Shown here: piece after piece, positions 1,657-19,125 of the stretch
How positions within the stretch are numbered: position 1 is the stretch's first letter
How the letters are laid out: every line of letters begins with the position of its first letter
Assembly (NCBI GenBank): GCA_026709225.1
Contig: JAPOTJ010000057.1
Coordinates: 1-40,348 of the forward strand
DNA length: 40,348 nucleotides
Direction: 5' to 3'
Source of the DNA: Gammaproteobacteria bacterium
GTDB lineage: Bacteria; Pseudomonadota; Gammaproteobacteria; Pseudomonadales; Azotimanducaceae
Made by a program: the position numbers and the translations under genes
Notes under the pieces: model-generated
Database searches by the model: none
Seen by the model: only the letters and a program-made list of their open reading frames with translations
Told to the model about the DNA's origin: nothing

Positions 1657-3759
1657 CTACTGCACTTGGCGAACTGCGATCAGATCTCTATTGCCGATGC
1701 CCCTGGTGAGTCCCCAGCGCACGAAGCCAACGTACACCAAGGCGATGAGCGCTGCCATCCCTAATATCCATAGCGAGCTGTTGAGTGGCTGGTCTGTATA
1801 TGTCCCCAATTGATAGCAGATTACCGCAAGCGAATAGGCGAGAGTGAGCGACCAAGCGACCGAAAATACGGCAAAAAAGCTTCCAAGTTCTCGAAATAAG
1901 GCACCGACTGTGGCAACGCAGGGGATGTACAGAAGAATAAACATGAGGTAGCAAAAGGCAGCGAGATCGGACGAAAAAGCGCGTCGAAGCTGTTCTACCG
2001 TGGTTGCCTGACCTACAAGCTCCATGCCTGCGGCAGACGCGTTGACTTGACCAAAGGCCAGCGGGTCCGCGGCGCTCTCCCCAAGTCCTAATAGATTTTC
2101 GGGAATCGTGCTTATGGCATTGCCAATAGTTGGCCAAAACTGAAATTCGCCGACTAGCGGCTCCGCCTCGGAATAGAGGGCGTCAAACGTTCCAACCACA
2201 ACCTCCTTGGCGAACATGCCTGTGAACAAGCCGACTGCGGCGGGCCAGTTGTCCTCTTCCACGCCCATCGGCGCGAGTATCGGCGTGATGCGCTTGCCAA
2301 TCTCGGACAGTACCGAGCTTTCAGTGTTCTCGTTACCGTAGCTGCCATCGGTTCCTAAGGAATTCAAGATGTTGAGCGCAACGACGACAATGACGATTGC
2401 TTTCCCGGCGCGCACTACGAAATCGCGCAACCGATGCCAGGCGACTCTCAGGACGTTGCCAAGTCTTGGTACGTGGTAGCTTGGCATTTCGAGCGTGAAT
2501 CCGCTTGATACGGGCGCGACAAGGTGCGAACGCAGCAGTAATACGGTAATGACTGCAACGAGAATTCCAATCACATAAAGCAAGAAGACTATTTCCGCCG
2601 CGTAGCCACGGAAGAAAGCTGCCGCGAACAGCGCGTAGACCGTCAATCGCGCGCCACATGACATGTAAGGCGCCATCAGCGCGGAGAACACCCGCTCAGC
2701 ATTACCCGGCAGCGCGCGGGTTGCCATCACCGCGGGCACGTTGCAGCCGAACCCGATGATAAGAGGCAGGAACGCATGACCCGGCAGCCCGGCTTTTCGC
2801 AGGAGTCGGTCCATCAAGAAGGCAGTGCGAGCCATATATCCCGAGCTCTCAAGCAGGGACAGGCACAGAAATAGAGTGCCGATGATCGGGATGAAGGTGC
2901 CGACAAGCTGAACTCCGCCGCCGACGCCGTCCGCGATGAACGTGGACAGCCAGTCTGGTGCGCCTGCGTGCAGCAGCAATGTCCGTGGCCCCTCGACGAA
3001 AAGTGCGGAGCCGACACCATCAAAGAAGTCGATAAACGCCCCGCCAACACCAATGGTGACGAGGAACATGAAATACACGACAGCCAGAAACAGCGGCAGA
3101 CCGAGCACAGGGTTGAGTAAAAGTGCGTCCAATCGGTCTGTTAGTCGCCCGGCGTTGCGTCCACCGGACACGGCTTCTGCACAGATTTGTTCCACGTGTC
3201 GATAACGCTCGGAAGGTCCAAGTGTGGTCTTCGAGGCGTTGCGAAGATGCACCTCGGGATTGGCAGCTGCGCGGCCGACGGCCGCCTTGAGTTGAGCAAT
3301 ACCTTCGTAGCGGCTTGCCGATACGCTCACCACTTCGCAGTTGAGATATTGCTCAAGCGCGCCACAATCAATCCTGAGGCCATGCCGGCGAGCCAAATCG
3401 CTCATGTTGAGCGCGACCACCATTGGCAACCCGAAGTCGCGCAACTGAGTGGCGATATAGAGGCCGCGCGTGAGTGAGGTGGCATCGACAACGCAAATGA
3501 CGGTGTCTGACTGACGGGAGGCGAGGAAATCGCTTGCGATTCGTTGATCGGCGGACATCATTGTTTGGCGCTCGGAGAAATCCGAAAGACCGGGCAGGTC
3601 TGTGACTTCACACGTCAAGGTGCCAACGCGAAATCGCCCTACTTTTTTGTCAACAGTGACGCCGGGCCAATTGCCGATGTGCTGTCGTGCGCCTGTCAGC
3701 ACGTTGAACAAGGTTGACTTGCCGACATTGGGGTTGCCTGCAAGAGCGACGCGAATCAT
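1657..3759 (-). CDS. feoB: Ferrous iron transport protein B (GTPase-coupled Fe2+ permease)
   Basis: 700 residues, somewhat shorter than E. coli FeoB. The N-terminal G domain shows G1 GNPNVGKST at residues 8-16, G3 DLPGLSDF and G4 NMSD. It is followed by a multi-spanning membrane domain with two Gate regions; one carries FGCNVPAVMATRALP with the conserved cysteine implicated in Fe2+ passage. The protein imports Fe2+ across the inner membrane. The ATG overlaps the feoA stop (ATGA), so the two are translationally coupled. No feoC is seen downstream. It is convergent with the MerR-TPR gene. Confidence 0.97.
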   Translation of the reverse strand: MIRVALAGNPNVGKSTLFNVLTGARQHIGNWPGVTVDKKVGRFRVGTLTCEVTDLPGLSDFSERQTMMSADQRIASDFLASRQSDTVICVVDATSLTRGLYIATQLRDFGLPMVVALNMSDLARRHGLRIDCGALEQYLNCEVVSVSASRYEGIAQLKAAVGRAAANPEVHLRNASKTTLGPSERYRHVEQICAEAVSGGRNAGRLTDRLDALLLNPVLGLPLFLAVVYFMFLVTIGVGGAFIDFFDGVGSALFVEGPRTLLLHAGAPDWLSTFIADGVGGGVQLVGTFIPIIGTLFLCLSLLESSGYMARTAFLMDRLLRKAGLPGHAFLPLIIGFGCNVPAVMATRALPGNAERVFSALMAPYMSCGARLTVYALFAAAFFRGYAAEIVFLLYVIGILVAVITVLLLRSHLVAPVSSGFTLEMPSYHVPRLGNVLRVAWHRLRDFVVRAGKAIVIVVVALNILNSLGTDGSYGNENTESSVLSEIGKRITPILAPMGVEEDNWPAAVGLFTGMFAKEVVVGTFDALYSEAEPLVGEFQFWPTIGNAISTIPENLLGLGESAADPLAFGQVNASAAGMELVGQATTVEQLRRAFSSDLAAFCYLMFILLYIPCVATVGALFRELGSFFAVFSVAWSLTLAYSLAVICYQLGTYTDQPLNSSLWILGMAALIALVYVGFVRWGLTRGIGNRDLIAVRQVQ

Positions 3760-12277: not shown

Positions 12278-14245
12278 ATGAGAACTTGGATCGTGGTCGT
12301 TGTGCTGTGCGCCATGCTCGCGGGGTGCGAGCGGCACACATCGGAGCGTGCGCAGCCTGCCGATATCGTCTTTACGGGCGGCACCATCTACACTGCGGAC
12401 GATTCAAGGCAAATCGTCAGCGCATTGGCGGTGCGCGCAAATCGTATCGTGTACGCGGGTGACGATGCCGGCGTAGCCGAGATCATCGGCGAGCAGACGA
12501 GCGTGCATGCGCTTGAGGGTGCGATGGTGCTGCCAGGCTTGCACGATATGCACATTCACGCCCTGGCCATCGTTCCCCCGGATGGCTGCGATATCAACAG
12601 CGAACCCATGACCTTGGCCGAGATCGCGGAGTTTGTTGCTTCCTGCATCGAAGCAGAAGCGCTTGCCGACGGCGAGTGGCTCAGCGTCACCCAGTGGAGC
12701 TTCTCGAACGGCAATCAGCCTGACGACGCGCTGAAGACCATGCGACAAGCGCTTGATCTGGGTGCGCCGAACAATCCGGTGATGCTGTGGGGCAATGATG
12801 GTCATCACGGCGCAGCAAATTCGCTTGCGCTCGCGCAGGCGAAGAATGCCAATGGTGAAACGGTCGGCATCTCCGCGCTCACCCTTGACACAGACTTCGC
12901 GGAATATCGCGAGACCATTGGCGTTGATGAGAACGGCGAGCCGAACGGCGGCATCAATGAAACGGCGCGCGACCTGATTCAGCCCCTTGAAGCAGGCCTG
13001 TTTGGCAGCATTCCGGATGATGCGGTAGAGAAGGTGGGCGAAGTGCTTGCTTCGCGAGGCATCACATCGATCATGGATGCGGCCATGCCGCCATCTCAGC
13101 TTGCGCTCTTCAAGCCCTTCGCTGAACGTGGCGAACTCGGCTACAACCTCGCTGCCGCCTTGTTTCTGACGCCTTCGGACTATCTTGCCGACGATGGCAG
13201 TCTCGACACCGAGTCCATGATCAAGGTATTGGTTGCAACGCGCGACGAATACGAGTCTGTGCCGCAAATTCGCGCCGATTTTGGCAAGGTATTTGTTGAT
13301 GGCGTTATTGAAGGCAATCCTTTCTCCGACCCGCCCACCCTACCCAACGCCGCTGTGCTTGAAGCCTATGAGCAGCCGTTGCTCGCCTACGACGCATCAT
13401 CCGACACGCTCGAAATCCGCGGCTATGTGGATGCCGCGAGCAGGGCCTGCGAGGAGTCTTCACAGGCTGTGCCGGCGTTTCGAGCCGAGCACGGCTTCCA
13501 CCCAAAGCAATGCCGGCAAAGCCGAGGTGTCCTCGAACACGACGAATATGTGATTCACGACTACATGCGCGCGCTCGATGCAGCCGGGTTCAAGATTCAT
13601 GCGCACGTGATTGGCGACCGCGCATTGCGGGTGGCCTTGGATGGCTTTGAATCGCTTGAGTCTGCCGATGCCGCGCGCCACAGCCTTGCGCACATCCAGC
13701 TCGTTCATCCTGACGATTACCAACGAATTGGCAATCTCGGCGTGTCGCTTGCCTTTACCTATGCGTGGATCACAACCGATCTTCCCTACGACCTGACGGT
13801 CATTCCGTTTATTGATCAAGTCGAGGGGGTGCGAGACCTCTATCGAGAGGACGGCTACTATTTCCAGAACGCCTATCCGGTGGCGGCGCTTCAAGACGCC
13901 GGAGCTGTGCTGGTGGCTGGCAGCGATGCGCCAGTGGACACGCGAGACCCGCGCCCGTTCGTCAACATCGCGCAAGCCGTGACGCGCGCTGGCACAGATG
14001 GCTCAGTGCTGAATACGTCGCACGCCATCAGCATTCTCGATGTACTCGATGCCTACACGATCAATGGCGCTCGTCTCTTCGGCCACGCGCAGCAAACCGG
14101 CTCACTTGAGGTCGGCAAGCTCGCCGACCTCACGGTCGTTGACCGGGATTTGATTCACCTCGCCGAGACAGGTCGTGCGCACGAGATTTCTGAGGCGCGC
14201 GTTGTCAAGACAATGTTCGAGGGGCAATGGGTGTTCGAACTCTAA
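12278..14245 (+). CDS. Predicted lipoprotein amidohydrolase (YtcJ-like)
   Basis: 655 residues. A lipoprotein signal (MRTWIVVVVLCAMLAGC, lipobox LAGC) is followed by an amidohydrolase family 3 fold. Metal-site phrases are HDMHIHA near residue 90, GNDGHHGAANS near 170, HVIGDRALRVALDGF in the second half, AHIQLVHPDDY, and AGSDAPVDTRDPRPF near the end. The composite beta-sandwich strands flank the barrel (DIVFTGGTIYTADD at the start, GKLADLTVVDRDL at the end). Members hydrolyse amides or cyclic ureas; the substrate is unknown. It is expected to be membrane-anchored and exposed in the periplasm. It ends about 40 bases before the rRNA promoter. Confidence 0.88.
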   Translation: MRTWIVVVVLCAMLAGCERHTSERAQPADIVFTGGTIYTADDSRQIVSALAVRANRIVYAGDDAGVAEIIGEQTSVHALEGAMVLPGLHDMHIHALAIVPPDGCDINSEPMTLAEIAEFVASCIEAEALADGEWLSVTQWSFSNGNQPDDALKTMRQALDLGAPNNPVMLWGNDGHHGAANSLALAQAKNANGETVGISALTLDTDFAEYRETIGVDENGEPNGGINETARDLIQPLEAGLFGSIPDDAVEKVGEVLASRGITSIMDAAMPPSQLALFKPFAERGELGYNLAAALFLTPSDYLADDGSLDTESMIKVLVATRDEYESVPQIRADFGKVFVDGVIEGNPFSDPPTLPNAAVLEAYEQPLLAYDASSDTLEIRGYVDAASRACEESSQAVPAFRAEHGFHPKQCRQSRGVLEHDEYVIHDYMRALDAAGFKIHAHVIGDRALRVALDGFESLESADAARHSLAHIQLVHPDDYQRIGNLGVSLAFTYAWITTDLPYDLTVIPFIDQVEGVRDLYREDGYYFQNAYPVAALQDAGAVLVAGSDAPVDTRDPRPFVNIAQAVTRAGTDGSVLNTSHAISILDVLDAYTINGARLFGHAQQTGSLEVGKLADLTVVDRDLIHLAETGRAHEISEARVVKTMFEGQWVFEL

Positions 14246-14262
14246 GAAGTCTTTTTTCGGGG

Positions 14263-14290
14263 TTGCGCATCTTTCAATAGCGCGTATAAT
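14263..14290 (+). promoter_or_regulatory. Sigma70 promoter of the rRNA unit
   Basis: TTGCGC (14263-14268), a 16-base spacer, then a perfect TATAAT (14285-14290), followed by a G/C-rich discriminator (GCGCCCCC) typical of stringently controlled stable-RNA promoters. Transcription should start near 14297 and reach tRNA-Ile after about 110 bases. Confidence 0.75.
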
Positions 14291-14333
14291 GCGCCCCCTT
14301 CGCTGCAGGGTTCTTGATTGAACTGTGTGGCGC

Positions 14334-14345
14334 GTTCTTTAAGAA
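14334..14345 (+). promoter_or_regulatory. Leader boxA-like antitermination site
   Basis: GTTCTTTAAGAA resembles the rrn boxA core (GCTCTTTAACAA), preceded by a CTGTGTGG element also seen in rrn leaders. Its position between the promoter and tRNA-Ile indicates a genuine rRNA leader even though no 16S gene follows. Confidence 0.55.
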
Positions 14346-14409
14346 GAATAGTTTTTGTGTTTAAGCGGCCTGCCGCCGGTAGGCGCATTTGGCGCTTATC
14401 TCGCACGCG

Positions 14410-14487
<78 letters not shown>

Positions 14488-14490
14488 TTC

Positions 14491-14540
14491 ATGTGATACA
14501 TGACATGTGATAAATGACATATGTAGATGACATGCAGATG
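14491..14540 (+). repeat. Short tandem repeat between the two tRNAs
   Basis: ATGTGATACATGAC (14491-14504), ATGTGATAAATGAC (14505-14518), a 13-base variant (14519-14531) and a partial ATGCAGATG (14532-14540). About 3.5 units fill most of the tRNA-Ile to tRNA-Ala spacer. Confidence 0.75.
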
Positions 14541-14556
14541 TCCTTCACAGAATATC

Positions 14557-14632
14557 GGGGCCGTAGCTCAGCTGGGAGAGCGCCTGCCTTGCACGCAGGA
14601 GGTCAGGAGTTCGATCCTCCTCGGCTCCACCA
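14557..14632 (+). tRNA. tRNA-Ala (TGC)
   Basis: 76 bases. The acceptor GGGGCCG pairs with CGGCTCC, the anticodon TGC is at 14590-14592 (CCTGCCTTGCACGCAGG), the T arm is AGTTCGATCCT, and CCA is encoded. It is the standard second tRNA of the Ile-Ala spacer type. Confidence 0.97.
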
Positions 14633-14949: not shown

Positions 14950-14970
14950 AAGATGCGTCGGGTTATATGG
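14950..14970 (+). other. 23S processing stem, 5' strand
   Basis: 21 bases pair with 19105-19125 with one G-U wobble, bringing together the two ends of the 23S gene. This is the long duplex cut by RNase III in pre-23S rRNA. Its integrity indicates a functional 23S transcript. Confidence 0.9.
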
Positions 14971-16077
14971 TCAAGCAATGAAGCGCACTTGGTGGATGCC
15001 TTGGCAACTAGAGGCGATGAAGGACGTCGTAGCCTGCGAAAAGCTTCGGGGAGTCGGCTAGCAGACTTTGATCCGGAGATGTCCGAATGGGGAAACCCAC
15101 CCGACTTGTCGGGTATCCTCACCTGAATACATAGGGTGTGGAAGCAAACCCGGGGAACTGAAATATCTAAGTACCCGGAGGAAAAGAAATCAATCGAGAT
15201 TTCCTTAGTAGCGACGAGCGAACGGGAATCAGCCCTTAAGCAGGTTGGAACATATTAATGTTGAAGTTAGCAGAAGTGTCTGGAAAGGCACACCATAGCG
15301 GGTGATAGTCCCGTATGCGAAAACTGCCAATCAGTGAAATCGAGTAGGGCGGGACACGTGAAATCCTGTCTGAACAGCATCGCGCTTCGGCGCGGTGCGA
15401 GGGGGGACCATCCTCCAAGGCTAAATACTCCTAGTTGACCGATAGCGAACCAGTACCGTGAGGGAAAGGCGAAAAGAACCCCGGAAGGGGAGTGAAATAG
15501 AACCTGAAACCGGGTGCGTACAAGCAGTGGGAGCCCTTGATGTCCCGTTTGTTTCTTCGGAAACACCTTTGGGACGAATAAGGGTGACTGCGTACCTTTT
15601 GTATAATGGGTCAGCGAGTTGCTGTTAGTGGCAAGGTTAACCGTGTAGGGGAGCCGTAGGGAAACCGAGTCTTAATAGGGCGAATGAGTCGCTAGGAGCA
15701 GACCCGAAACCGGGCGAGCTAGCCATGGCCAGGGTGAAGGTTCGGTAACACGAACTGGAGGCCCGAACCCACCTATGTTGAAAAATGGGGGGATGAGCTG
15801 TGGCTCGGAGTGAAAGGCTAATCAAGCCCGGAGATAGCTGGTTCTCCTCGAAAACTATTTAGGTAGTGCCTCTTGTATCACCGCCGGGGGTAGAGCACTG
15901 TTTGGGCTAGGGGGTCATCTCGACTTACCAAACCCATGCAAACTCCGAATACCGGTGAGTGCAGCAAGGGAGACAGACGGTGGGTGCTAAGGTCCATCGT
16001 CGAAAGGGAAACAGCCCAGACCGCCAGCTAAGGTCCCAAAGTGATAGTTAAGTGGGAAACGATGTGGGAAGGCACAA

Positions 16078-16139
<62 letters not shown>

Positions 16140-16864
16140 GAGTCGGCCTGCGCGGAAGATGTAACGGGGCTCAAACTATCCACCGAAGCTGCGGGTTCGT
16201 GAACACCTTCGGGTGTTCATGGGCGGTAGAGGAGCGTTCTGTAAGCCGTTGAAGGCGAGCCGTGAGGCTTGCTGGAGGTATCAGAAGTGAGAATGCTGAC
16301 ATGAGTAACGATAAAGGGAGTGAAAATCTCCCTCGCCGAAAGACTAAGGGTTCCTGCGCCACGCTCATCGGCGCAGGGTGAGTCGGCCCCTAAGGTGAGG
16401 CCGAAAGGCGTAGCCGATGGGAAACGGGTCAAAATTCCCGTACCAATGATGACTGCGATGGAGTGACGGAGAAGGCTAGGTCATGCCTGGCGATGGTCGT
16501 CCAGGTCCAAGCATGTAGGCTGGGTTCTTAGGAAAATCCGGGAGCCTTTCAAGGCCGAGATGTGATGGCGAACTCCTCCTATGTGGGGAGGAAGTGGCTG
16601 ATGCCATGCTTCCAGGAAAAACTTCTAAGCTTTAAGGTCATCATTGACCGTACCGCAAACCGACACAGGTAGTCAGGTAGAGAATACTAAGGCGCTTGAG
16701 AGAACTCGGGTGAAGGAACTAGGCAAAATAGCACCGTAACTTCGGGAGAAGGTGCGCCCCCATTAGGTGAAGACACTTGCTGTCCGAGCCGAAGGGGGCC
16801 GCAGATACCAGGTGGCTGCGACTGTTTACTAAAAACACAGCACTCTGCAAACTCGCAAGAGGAC

Positions 16865-16897
<33 letters not shown>

Positions 16898-16967
16898 ATT
16901 AAGTGATCAGGTTAGCCTTCGGGCGAAGCTTGTGACCGAAGTCCTGGTAAACGGCGGCCGTAACTAT

Positions 16968-17777
16968 GAGCTAAACTCTGACCATTGTAGTTACGTAAAT
17001 AAACTTGGCTATATGCTGGAATATCCGGTGTATCTGGTGGTACTCGTTTGACATCTCATTTGACAATGACGTTCAAACAGTGACAATCCATCCAGTGCGG
17101 ACAATCAGCAGGAAAGGTTCCTGTCATGGCTTCGAAAGATCAACACAAGATTCCTGACCGAATCGGTTATTACCTCGCGGGGTTTGCCGACGGTGAAGGA
17201 AGCTTCAGCCTCTCTTTTCGTAAGCGCAAAGATTATTCACAGCCGTGGAAAATCTCCCTGTGTTTCAACGTCTCCCAGCGTGACAAAGTCATTTTGGCTT
17301 TGTTCAAGAGGCATTTGAAGTGCGGAACGCTGCGCTCCAGAAAAGACGGTGTTTGGTATTACGAAGTCAACAATCATCGAGCGATTTGCGAGAATGTGAT
17401 CCCATTCTTTAATCAGTTCGGATTCTTGTCGGCTAAGAAAAAGCGCGATTTTGCGAAATTCAAGCAGGTCGCGGCGCTTATTAGCGAGGGAGCACATCTG
17501 ACTGAAGACGGAATTAGACGGATTCTTGAGATTCGCAGTGACATGAACGATGGCGGTGCGCGAAGACGTAAGTACTCGGACACCGAAATCGTCCAAGTAT
17601 TGCTTCAAAGCAATGTGACGGGAAAATCCTCAGAGACTACACGCCAAGCCGCTTCATTGAACTCATGCAAGTGATGCAATGGCGCGGATGATATAGTCCG
17701 AACTCTGTGGCGACATAGAGAGCCAGACGGAAACGATCTGGCCGGTTCGACAACTTTTCGAACTAGTAACAAACTTG
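16968..17777 (+). other. Group I intron 1 (insertion at 23S position 1917)
   Basis: 810 nt. The 5' exon ends GUAACUAU and pairs with the internal guide GUAGUUAC (16987-16994), leaving the diagnostic U-G pair at the splice site. ACCAUU just before the guide can pair with the 3' exon AACGGU (P10, one mismatch). The intron ends in G17777. Core landmarks are TGCGGACAATCAGCAGGAAAG (17095-17115, P4-P6 region) and P7 formed by GACTA (17635-17639) and TAGTC (17694-17698). Numbering is by alignment to the E. coli sequence from memory. Confidence 0.93.
17126..17674 (+). CDS. LAGLIDADG homing endonuclease in intron 1
   Basis: 182 residues. A single LAGLIDADG motif, YYLAGFADGEGSF (residues 15-27, catalytic acid Asp22), implies a homodimer like I-CreI or I-CeuI. 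The rest follows the family fold (SLCFNVSQRDKVILALFKRHL, WYYEVNNH, IIPFF-like VIPFFNQFGFLS). Its expected function is to cut intronless 23S alleles at the insertion site and so spread the intron. The ATG is preceded by AGGAAAGG. The last 15-20 codons run through the intron P7 region (17635-17639), so coding and ribozyme constraints overlap there. It is intact, with no frameshift. Confidence 0.93.
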   Translation: MASKDQHKIPDRIGYYLAGFADGEGSFSLSFRKRKDYSQPWKISLCFNVSQRDKVILALFKRHLKCGTLRSRKDGVWYYEVNNHRAICENVIPFFNQFGFLSAKKKRDFAKFKQVAALISEGAHLTEDGIRRILEIRSDMNDGGARRRKYSDTEIVQVLLQSNVTGKSSETTRQAASLNSCK

Positions 17778-17791
17778 AACGGTCCTAAGGT
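17778..17791 (+). other. 14-nt 23S exon between the introns
   Basis: AACGGTCCTAAGGT corresponds to E. coli 23S positions 1918-1931. Joined to GTAACTAT upstream and AGCGAAATTCC downstream it restores the conserved helix 69 region precisely. Its first six bases serve intron 1 (P10) and its last seven serve intron 2 (P1). Confidence 0.93.
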
Positions 17792-18136
17792 AAAGGTTTA
17801 TTCGTTGCCTTAGTAAAATCTGGCTATATGCTGGGAACTCCGAGTATCCGTCGGTACTTGCTTCTGCAAGTGACAATCCGGCGGTGCGGACAATCAGCAG
17901 GAAAGACCGGCAAATCAATGCTTTGCGAACTTATGCATAGCAGAGACTTGACGGAATCCTCAGAGACTACACGCCAGACCGCAAATCTCGTGAAGATGAG
18001 CGGAAGATATAGTCCGAACTATGTGGCGACACGTAGAGCAGTCCACGAAAGTGGCTGCCGCCTCAATTTTTCGCCAGTAATGGCGATGATGCTTTGAGGT
18101 CTGGTCGCATGCTCATGCGACCCAAGTAACAGCACG
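17792..18136 (+). other. Group I intron 2 (insertion at 23S position 1931)
   Basis: 345 nt, without a credible ORF. The 5' exon end CUAAGGU pairs with guide GCCUUAG (17807-17813), again leaving a terminal U-G. UUCGUU (17801-17806) pairs fully with the 3' exon AGCGAA as P10. The intron ends in G18136. The core carries the same TGCGGACAATCAGCAGGAAAG block (17885-17905) and P7 (GACTA 17965-17969, TAGTC 18010-18014) as intron 1, so the two are close relatives. Confidence 0.93.
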
Positions 18137-18183
<47 letters not shown>

Positions 18184-18589
18184 CGATGGCCACACTGTCT
18201 CCACCCGAGACTCAGTGAAATTGAATTCGCGGTCAAGATGCCGTGTACCCGCGGCTAGACGAGAAGACCCCGTGAACCTTTACTACAGCTTCACACTGAA
18301 CTTTGATCTATCTTGTGTAGGATAGGTGGGAGGCTTTGAAGCCTGGGCGCCAGCCCGGGTGGAGCCATCCTTGAAATACCACCCTGGTTAGGTTGGAGTT
18401 CTAACTCAGGCCCGTTATCCGGGTCGAGGACCGTGTGTGGTGGGTAGTTTGACTGGGGCGGTCTCCTCCTAAAGAGTAACGGAGGAGCGCGATGGTGCGC
18501 TCAGCATGGTCGGAAATCATGCAATGCGTGTAAAGGCAAAAGCGCGCCTGACTGCGAGACCGACGGGTCGAGCAGGGTCGAAAGACGGT

Positions 18590-18665
<76 letters not shown>

Positions 18666-18694
18666 ACCGCCCAAGAGTTCACATCGACGGCGGT

Positions 18695-18772
<78 letters not shown>

Positions 18773-18938
18773 TGGTACGCGAGCTGGGTTTAGAACGTCG
18801 TGAGACAGTTCGGTCCCTATCTGCCGTGGGCGTTTGAGATTTGAGAGGAGCTGCTCCTAGTACGAGAGGGCCGGAGTGGACGAACCTCTGGTGTTCCGGT
18901 TGTCACGCCAGTGGCACCGCCGGGTAGCTATGTTCGGA

Positions 18939-18974
<36 letters not shown>

Positions 18975-19104
18975 CCCTCAAGATGAGATCTCACCGAATC
19001 TTCGGATTCATGAAGGGCCCTTGTAGACGACAAGGTTGATAGGCGGGATGTGTAAGCGCCGCGAGGCGTTCAGCTAACCCGTACTAATTGCCCGTTTGGC
19101 TTGG

Positions 19105-19125
19105 CCATATAACTCGACGCATCTT
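19105..19125 (+). other. 23S processing stem, 3' strand
   Basis: Complement of 14950-14970 with one G-U pair. The 24 bases that follow lead straight into 5S. Confidence 0.9.

What the first reader, a model, noticed from the sequence alone, without database searches (positions are those of the whole stretch)
16968..18136. Two group I introns 14 nt apart in the 23S rRNA gene
Introns of 810 and 345 nt interrupt 23S rRNA at positions equivalent to E. coli 1917 and 1931, leaving an exon of 14 nt. Both have a P1 with the splice-site U-G pair, a P10 and a terminal G, and removing both restores the conserved rRNA exactly. Group I introns at 23S positions in this region are known (for example Coxiella L1917 and Thermotoga L1931), but I know of no case with two this close.
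Basis: partly seen in the sequence, partly recalled or inferred. Interest (0 to 1): 0.92.

Follow-up and report, generated by a model that had tools for sequence, protein, structure and literature searches.

The report
Paired group I introns in 23S rRNA
The large ribosomal RNA gene of this uncultured bacterium is interrupted by two related group I introns only 14 letters apart, which are predicted to cut themselves out one by one; the same pair of sites is already published for other organisms, but in each of the six genomes of its class where we found the first intron the second was there too, so the two likely travel together.

Summary
Intron 1 (16968-17777, 810 nt) and intron 2 (17792-18136, 345 nt) sit after E. 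coli positions 1917 and 1931 and leave the exon AACGGTCCTAAGGT. Both show P1 with a U.G pair, P3, P4, P7, P9 and a terminal G; only intron 2 passes Rfam's group I cut-off. Intron 1 carries an open LAGLIDADG endonuclease gene (17126-17674), intron 2 none. P10 is clear in intron 2, weak in intron 1.

The claim that no two are known this close is wrong: Synechococcus sp. C9 (2007) and the Navicula vanseea plastid (2024) have both sites, and the coordinates printed for Thiomargarita (2016) also imply a 14-nt exon.

New here: six gammaproteobacterial genomes with an L1917 intron were found, and all six also have L1931. Four pairs have one open endonuclease gene, two have none, no pair has two. In one relative the L1931 intron carries an L1917-type endonuclease; in another the neighbours agree in 89 of 90 core positions. 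I infer separate splicing and joint spread on one endonuclease; both are untested. A new member of a known kind with a testable evolutionary twist.

The parts
14969..19108 (+). 23S rRNA gene, interrupted twice
   Evidence: Rfam RF02541, 2692.8 bits; E. coli 23S aligns as 1-1917 and 1932-2898
16968..17777 (+). Intron 1, L1917, 810 nt, terminal G
   Evidence: Boundaries by comparison with E. coli 23S; paired elements; Rfam 23.3 bits, below the cut-off of 50
17126..17674 (+). LAGLIDADG endonuclease gene, 182 aa, in the P6 region of intron 1 and running on through the R strand of the core
   Evidence: ORF; Pfam PF00961, 69.1 bits, cut-off 23.1; motif LAGFADGEG
17778..17791 (+). 14-nt exon AACGGTCCTAAGGT, equal to E. 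coli 1918-1931
17792..18136 (+). Intron 2, L1931, 345 nt, no endonuclease gene, terminal G
   Evidence: Rfam RF00028, 55.5 bits; no endonuclease motif in the three frames of its strand
16960..16994 (+). P1 of intron 1: exon 16960-16967 GTAACTAT with guide 16987-16994 GTAGTTAC, last pair U.G
17785..17813 (+). P1 of intron 2: exon 17785-17791 CTAAGGT with guide 17807-17813 GCCTTAG, last pair U.G
17801..17806 (+). P10 strand of intron 2, TTCGTT, pairs with 3' exon AGCGAA at 18137-18142
17004..17648 (+). P3 of intron 1: 17004-17009 CTTGGC with 17643-17648 GCCAAG
   Evidence: two-sided changes among relatives
17635..17698 (+). P7 of intron 1: 17635-17639 GACTA with 17694-17698 TAGTC
17703..17720 (+). 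P9 of intron 1, GCGA loop
17819..17978 (+). P3 of intron 2: 17819-17824 TCTGGC with 17973-17978 GCCAGA
   Evidence: alignment
17965..18014 (+). P7 of intron 2: 17965-17969 GACTA with 18010-18014 TAGTC
   Evidence: alignment
18019..18036 (+). P9 of intron 2, GCGA loop

Best explanation
[quoted passage not shown] Shown by sequence: the boundaries, the paired elements of both ribozymes, the open endonuclease gene, and an exon identical to E. coli 1918-1931. Inferred: each intron is aimed by its own guide sequence, which does not fit the other's 5' splice site; in the 14-nt exon, nt 1-5 are left for the weak P10 of intron 1 and nt 8-14 serve P1 of intron 2, so the two do not overlap and either splicing order is possible; a cut by the L1917 enzyme in an intron-free gene would be repaired from the donor and would copy the L1931 intron, 14 bp away, as a passenger.
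For: Anatomy; P3 and P9 stay paired through two-sided changes (72 of 72 cells in 12 introns and 77 of 77 in 11 introns; 0 of 10,000 shuffles each). Guides fit their own site in full and the other site in 3 of 8 and 3 of 7 positions. Joint occurrence: the L1917 junction pattern hit 5 of 369 genomes of the class and one more among 36 of G084's order (G739); all six distinct genomes have both introns with the 14-nt exon; an L1931 pattern hit 4 of the same 369, all of them among those five (6.6e-9 if independent, kinship ignored). The five class genomes lie in five families. Open endonuclease genes: one in 4 of 6 pairs (twice in L1917, twice in L1931), none in 2 of 6, two in 0 of 6.
Against: No RNA or reads were examined. 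Synechococcus C9 and Navicula have an endonuclease gene in both introns. L1917 occurs without L1931 in a Gemmatimonadetes and a Planctomycetota MAG. Three of the six genomes have further large inserts in 23S, so tolerance of introns may explain the joint occurrence. Denominators are genomes, not 23S genes. P10 of intron 1 is poor, and intron 1 stays below Rfam's cut-off.
Confidence: 0.7

Rival explanations
1. Two independent invasions: each intron came by its own homing event into hosts whose rRNA genes tolerate introns, and intron 2 later lost its endonuclease gene. There is no joint mobility.
For: G174 has an L1931 intron with a different enzyme (30-32% identical to the five others); G174, G084 and G739 have further large inserts in 23S; C9 has full enzyme genes in both introns.
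Against: In the window and in G097 the pair is the only large insert in the part of 23S compared; 4 of 4 L1931-pattern carriers were among the five L1917 carriers; the L1931 enzyme of G092 is of the L1917 type.
Confidence: 0.3
2. Exon skipping dominates: the 5' site of intron 1 joins the 3' site of intron 2, both introns and the 14-nt exon leave together, and much of the 23S RNA is defective.
For: Exon skipping is known with similar or short-spaced group I introns: Twort orf142 (23 nt), Coxiella (34 nt), engineered Tetrahymena pairs (PMC10136302, sections 1 and 4). The two introns are alike in the core.
Against: The guides do not fit each other's 5' site; one 23S copy was found in the assembly, so loss of half of helix 69 (name recalled) should be costly; Ueda et al. 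say that distinct splice-site elements suppress stepwise skipping.
Confidence: 0.06
3. The inserts are removed without ligation, as intervening sequences are, and the rRNA stays in pieces.
For: Such inserts are known in bacterial 23S genes (PMC4990558, passages).
Against: Full group I core, guides and terminal G in both, and a 14-nt exon that would be lost as a loose fragment (inference).
Confidence: 0.03
4. Assembly artefact joining two loci.
For: Draft genome of 111 contigs, and no 16S gene precedes this 23S gene in the window.
Against: The same order and the same 14-nt exon appear in five other genomes, and both flanks continue as one 23S gene.
Confidence: 0.02

Closest known systems
Synechococcus sp. 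C9 23S introns L1917, L1931, L2593 (PMC1995217, parts 1-3 of 5 read)
   Same: Same two sites in one bacterial gene, hence the same 14-nt spacing; L1917 intron of 743 nt with a 181-aa LAGLIDADG gene that runs through the core
   Different: L1931 there is 666 nt with its own enzyme gene; introns and enzymes there group by site, whereas here the two sites look related
Ca. Thiomargarita nelsonii Bud S10 23S introns (PMC4853749, passages)
   Same: Gammaproteobacterium; printed coordinates 2038-2823 and 2838-3111 give 786 and 274 nt with 14 nt between, much like this pair
   Different: Site names, intron class and enzyme genes not given there (no Rfam match reported); a third intron follows 23 nt later; that these are L1917 and L1931 is my inference from spacing
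Navicula vanseea plastid rrl introns L1917 and L1931 (PMC11019260, passages)
   Same: Same two sites in one gene
   Different: Plastid, subgroup IB4, enzyme genes in both introns, enzymes group by site
Coxiella burnetii L1917 and L1951 (PMC10136302 introduction; PMC4990558 and PMC11019260 passages; the primary paper is not held)
   Same: Two group I introns around a short exon in a gammaproteobacterial 23S gene; exon skipping reported
   Different: 34-nt exon, second site 1951, introns of different subgroups (IB2 and IA3)
Phage Twort orf142 introns 2 and 3 (PMC10136302 introduction)
   Same: Two similar group I introns around a short exon (23 nt)
   Different: Protein gene of a phage; exon skipping observed
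Sponge cox1 introns 714 and 723 (PMC5360047, passages)
   Same: Neighbouring group I introns (9 nt apart by their names); that study reports that two intact ones never occur together, one is always degenerating, much as no pair here has two open enzyme genes
   Different: Mitochondrial protein gene

Membership tests
Group I intron (intron 1) | P1 with U.G at the 5' splice site, P3/P4/P7 core, terminal G | tested here: met
   (P4 offset in that script was one base off; TGCTG/CAGCA read by eye)
Group I intron (intron 1) | Rfam RF00028 gathering score of 50 | tested here: not met
   23.3 bits; the 549-nt gene inside the core is a plausible reason, not shown
Group I intron (intron 2) | Rfam RF00028 gathering score of 50 | tested here: met
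   55.5 bits
Group I intron (intron 2) | P1 with U.G, P3/P4/P7 core, P10, terminal G | tested here: met
Group I intron (both) | Guanosine-dependent self-splicing | not testable with these tools
   needs RNA work
Group I subgroup (IB, IC and so on) | Peripheral elements typical of one subgroup | not tested
   no subgroup models on hand
LAGLIDADG homing endonuclease (17126-17674) | LAGLIDADG_1 domain with the motif, open reading frame | tested here: met
   PF00961 69.1 bits; solved homologs such as I-SmaMI at 1.2e-32
LAGLIDADG homing endonuclease (17126-17674) | Cuts the intron-free L1917 site | not testable with these tools
   needs protein
Published L1931 site clade | Intron and enzyme nearest to others at L1931 | tested here: inconclusive
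   Segment A of the window's L1931 intron: 0.62 to the L1931 intron of G174, 0.71-0.79 to the four other L1931 introns, 0.66-0.80 to six of eight L1917 introns and 0.45 and 0.60 to the other two. Tree unresolved, AU p 0.24. Published L1931 introns were not available.

The most novel reading that the evidence does not exclude
The L1931 introns of this group are L1917 introns that jumped 14 nt downstream by exchanging their guide sequence. They now live with their parent as a composite mobile element: one enzyme gene, in whichever copy keeps it, moves both, and gene conversion between the neighbours homogenises their cores.
Probability: 0.35. Interest if true: 0.68.

Novelty: new member of a known kind. 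Interest (0 to 1): 0.4.

Why it matters
How group I introns reach new sites is open: a review says that there is no direct evidence for the reverse-splicing route and that the best circumstantial case is related introns at two sites of rRNA genes (PMC3984707, passages). This group offers such a case at a distance of 14 nt, with relatives in which the enzyme gene sits in one neighbour or the other and one relative with a nearly identical core tract. Local transposition, joint homing and conversion become testable, and so does accurate splicing around a very short rRNA exon.

Tried and rejected
Led nowhere: plasmid collection, no match; viral collection, 0 stretches for a tandem pattern and 117 for an L1931 pattern (80 listed), none of the held ones with 23S-like flanks by my test; intron 2 as a DNA query in the phylum, 3 of 299 genomes, the two besides the window with one short match each of 43 and 32 bases that I did not examine; the enzyme in the phylum, 1 of 299, the window itself; the genome-contig scan for the enzyme, 3 loci. 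The whole order gave 1 of 381, the window.

Rejected: a recent duplication in the window itself (segment A of its two introns is 0.66 identical; its best shared run ranks 17 of 55 by score and 20 of 55 by p); unligated intervening sequence; chance.

Limits of my tests: the run scan gives low p for many unrelated pairs because conserved core columns run together, so I rely only on the size of the G097 tract (44.4, next 27.7 of all 55 pairs). The within-host permutation is extreme in segment A (1 of 120; 1 of 24 without G097) but not in B (20 of 120; 5 of 24) and less in C (3 of 120; 3 of 24), and shared base composition may add to it. Rows dropped: one search used 11 of 14 introns (both of G739, near-copies of G084, and the divergent G174_1931 left out); one search used 12 (P3) and 11 (P9) of 14. 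G092's L1917 intron starts in a masked stretch, so its 5' splice site was not seen. G097's L1931 intron escaped the second pattern and was read by script. In one search the script took a false R copy for P3 and P7 of intron 2 and was one base off in P4; I corrected these by eye.

Full report
Observation. The 23S gene (14969-19108) contains two inserts with exact boundaries, 16968-17777 and 17792-18136, separated by AACGGTCCTAAGGT. An annotated E. coli 23S gene puts the sites at 1917 and 1931 and shows the exon letter for letter as 1918-1931. The rest of the gene aligns without large inserts. The genome search found one copy. The host is an uncultured gammaproteobacterium; the closest named relatives of its ParE protein are MAGs called Gammaproteobacteria or Pseudomonadales (names given for some of the 120 listed).

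Anatomy. Rfam scores intron 2 at 55.5 bits (cut-off 50) and intron 1 at 23.3. Both read as the same ribozyme type: P1 with U.G (8 and 7 bp), P3 (CTTGGC/GCCAAG and TCTGGC/GCCAGA), P7 GACTA/TAGTC, P9 with a GCGA loop, terminal G. Among relatives P3 and P9 change on both sides and stay paired: 72 of 72 cells in 12 introns and 77 of 77 in 11 introns, against 0 of 10,000 shuffles each. P10 is 6 bp in intron 2 and poor in intron 1. Each guide fits only its own splice site. The two introns resemble each other directly: blastn finds 72% over 107, 89% over 38 and 79% over 39 aligned positions.

Enzyme. Intron 1 encodes a 182-aa single-motif LAGLIDADG protein. Its C-terminal SSETTRQ is the translation of the catalytic core strand around TCCTCAGAGACTACACGCCA, and 117 of the 120 homologs listed (of 3876 found) carry a like motif in their last 35 residues, so this enzyme family appears tied to this ribozyme core.

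Relatives. The junction pattern GAACGGTCCTAAGGT hit 5 of 369 genomes of the class, 1 of 381 of the order (the window), 1 of 19, 1 of 2 and 1 of 6 in the orders of G097, G174 and G092 (the same genomes again) and 2 of 36 in the order of G084 (G084 and G739). All six distinct genomes have introns at both sites with the 14-nt exon. An L1931 pattern over the same 369 genomes hit 4, all among the five; it misses introns whose second base is G, such as G097's. L1917 alone occurs in a Gemmatimonadetes and a Planctomycetota MAG. G092 is named elsewhere as a Chromatiales MAG (contig length 14222). Denominators are genomes, not 23S genes; draft genomes may lack the gene.

Enzyme genes per pair. Window and G097: open in L1917. 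G092 and G174: open in L1931. G084 and G739: motif present in L1917 but the longest open stretch is 74 and 46 codons, so broken, and no motif in L1931. No pair has two. Synechococcus C9 and Navicula have both, so this is no law. A like pattern is reported for sponge cox1 introns (PMC5360047, passages).

Relation of the two sites. Published trees group introns and enzymes by site. Here the L1931 enzyme of G092 is 62-70% identical to four L1917 enzymes and 30% to the L1931 enzyme of G174. G097's two introns agree in 89 of 90 positions of segment A (P4 to the start of P6) while guide and 3' parts differ, the strongest shared tract of all 55 pairs. In the window no such tract stands out. Segment A of L1931 introns is not cleanly separated from L1917 introns, but the tree of 14 introns is unresolved and does not reject one L1931 clade (p 0.24). 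I therefore hold the jump from 1917 to 1931 as possible for the group, best supported by the G092 enzyme, and not shown.

Literature. The double site is in print: PMC1995217 (parts 1-3 of 5 read), PMC11019260 (passages) and, by spacing, PMC4853749 (passages). Short exons between group I introns with exon skipping are known (PMC10136302, introduction and discussion). A CPR survey lists 1917 and 1931 among frequent insert sites (PMC11270868, passages and section 5 part 1); whether one gene has both was not seen. In the listings of my nine paper searches I saw no title or abstract with the joint-mobility reading for rRNA introns of bacteria; most subscription papers are not held.

Mechanism. Two self-contained ribozymes, each aimed by its own guide, predicted to splice in either order; the enzyme is expected to cut intron-free L1917 sites, and repair would copy both introns because they lie 14 bp apart. 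The splicing part follows from the known chemistry of the family and the anatomy. The mobility part is inference from joint occurrence and the single enzyme gene; general tolerance of introns in these hosts is the main rival, since three of the six have further large inserts.

Verdict. Real, correctly placed and of a known kind. The recurrence in one class, the shifting place of the enzyme gene and the mixed kinship of the two sites are the new and testable parts.

Noticed in passing
window 12278-14632: No 16S gene lies upstream of tRNA-Ile (14410) and tRNA-Ala; a 655-aa ORF ends 165 bases before the tRNA. Either an unlinked 16S or an assembly join.
   Followed up: no
L015 2483-4181 (G174): Three inserts in a row at E. 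coli positions 1917, 1931 and 1951 (309, 624 and about 732 nt) with exons of 14 and 20 nt; the third carries an ORF of 182 codons with a GLIEGEGCF motif but has no Rfam match. Further inserts with endonuclease-like ORFs between 2475 and 2501.
   Followed up: partly
L014 6058; L027 (G084, G739): The L1931 intron of both ends in A instead of the usual terminal G. Their 23S genes also have inserts near 1165-1181 and 2500.
   Followed up: no
window 17940-17949: Intron 2 holds a second CAGAGACT about 22 nt upstream of the true R strand, a possible misfolding competitor.
   Followed up: no
window 17109-17128: The likely ribosome-binding site of the endonuclease gene (AGGAAAGG) is part of the ribozyme's Q/P6 strand, so folding may hide it (read by eye).
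   Followed up: no
P0001: A 186-aa enzyme 97% identical to the window's, with four extra residues (SSDM repeated), occurs in the protein database on contigs up to 3.36 Mb, so a near relative likely has the same intron.
   Followed up: no
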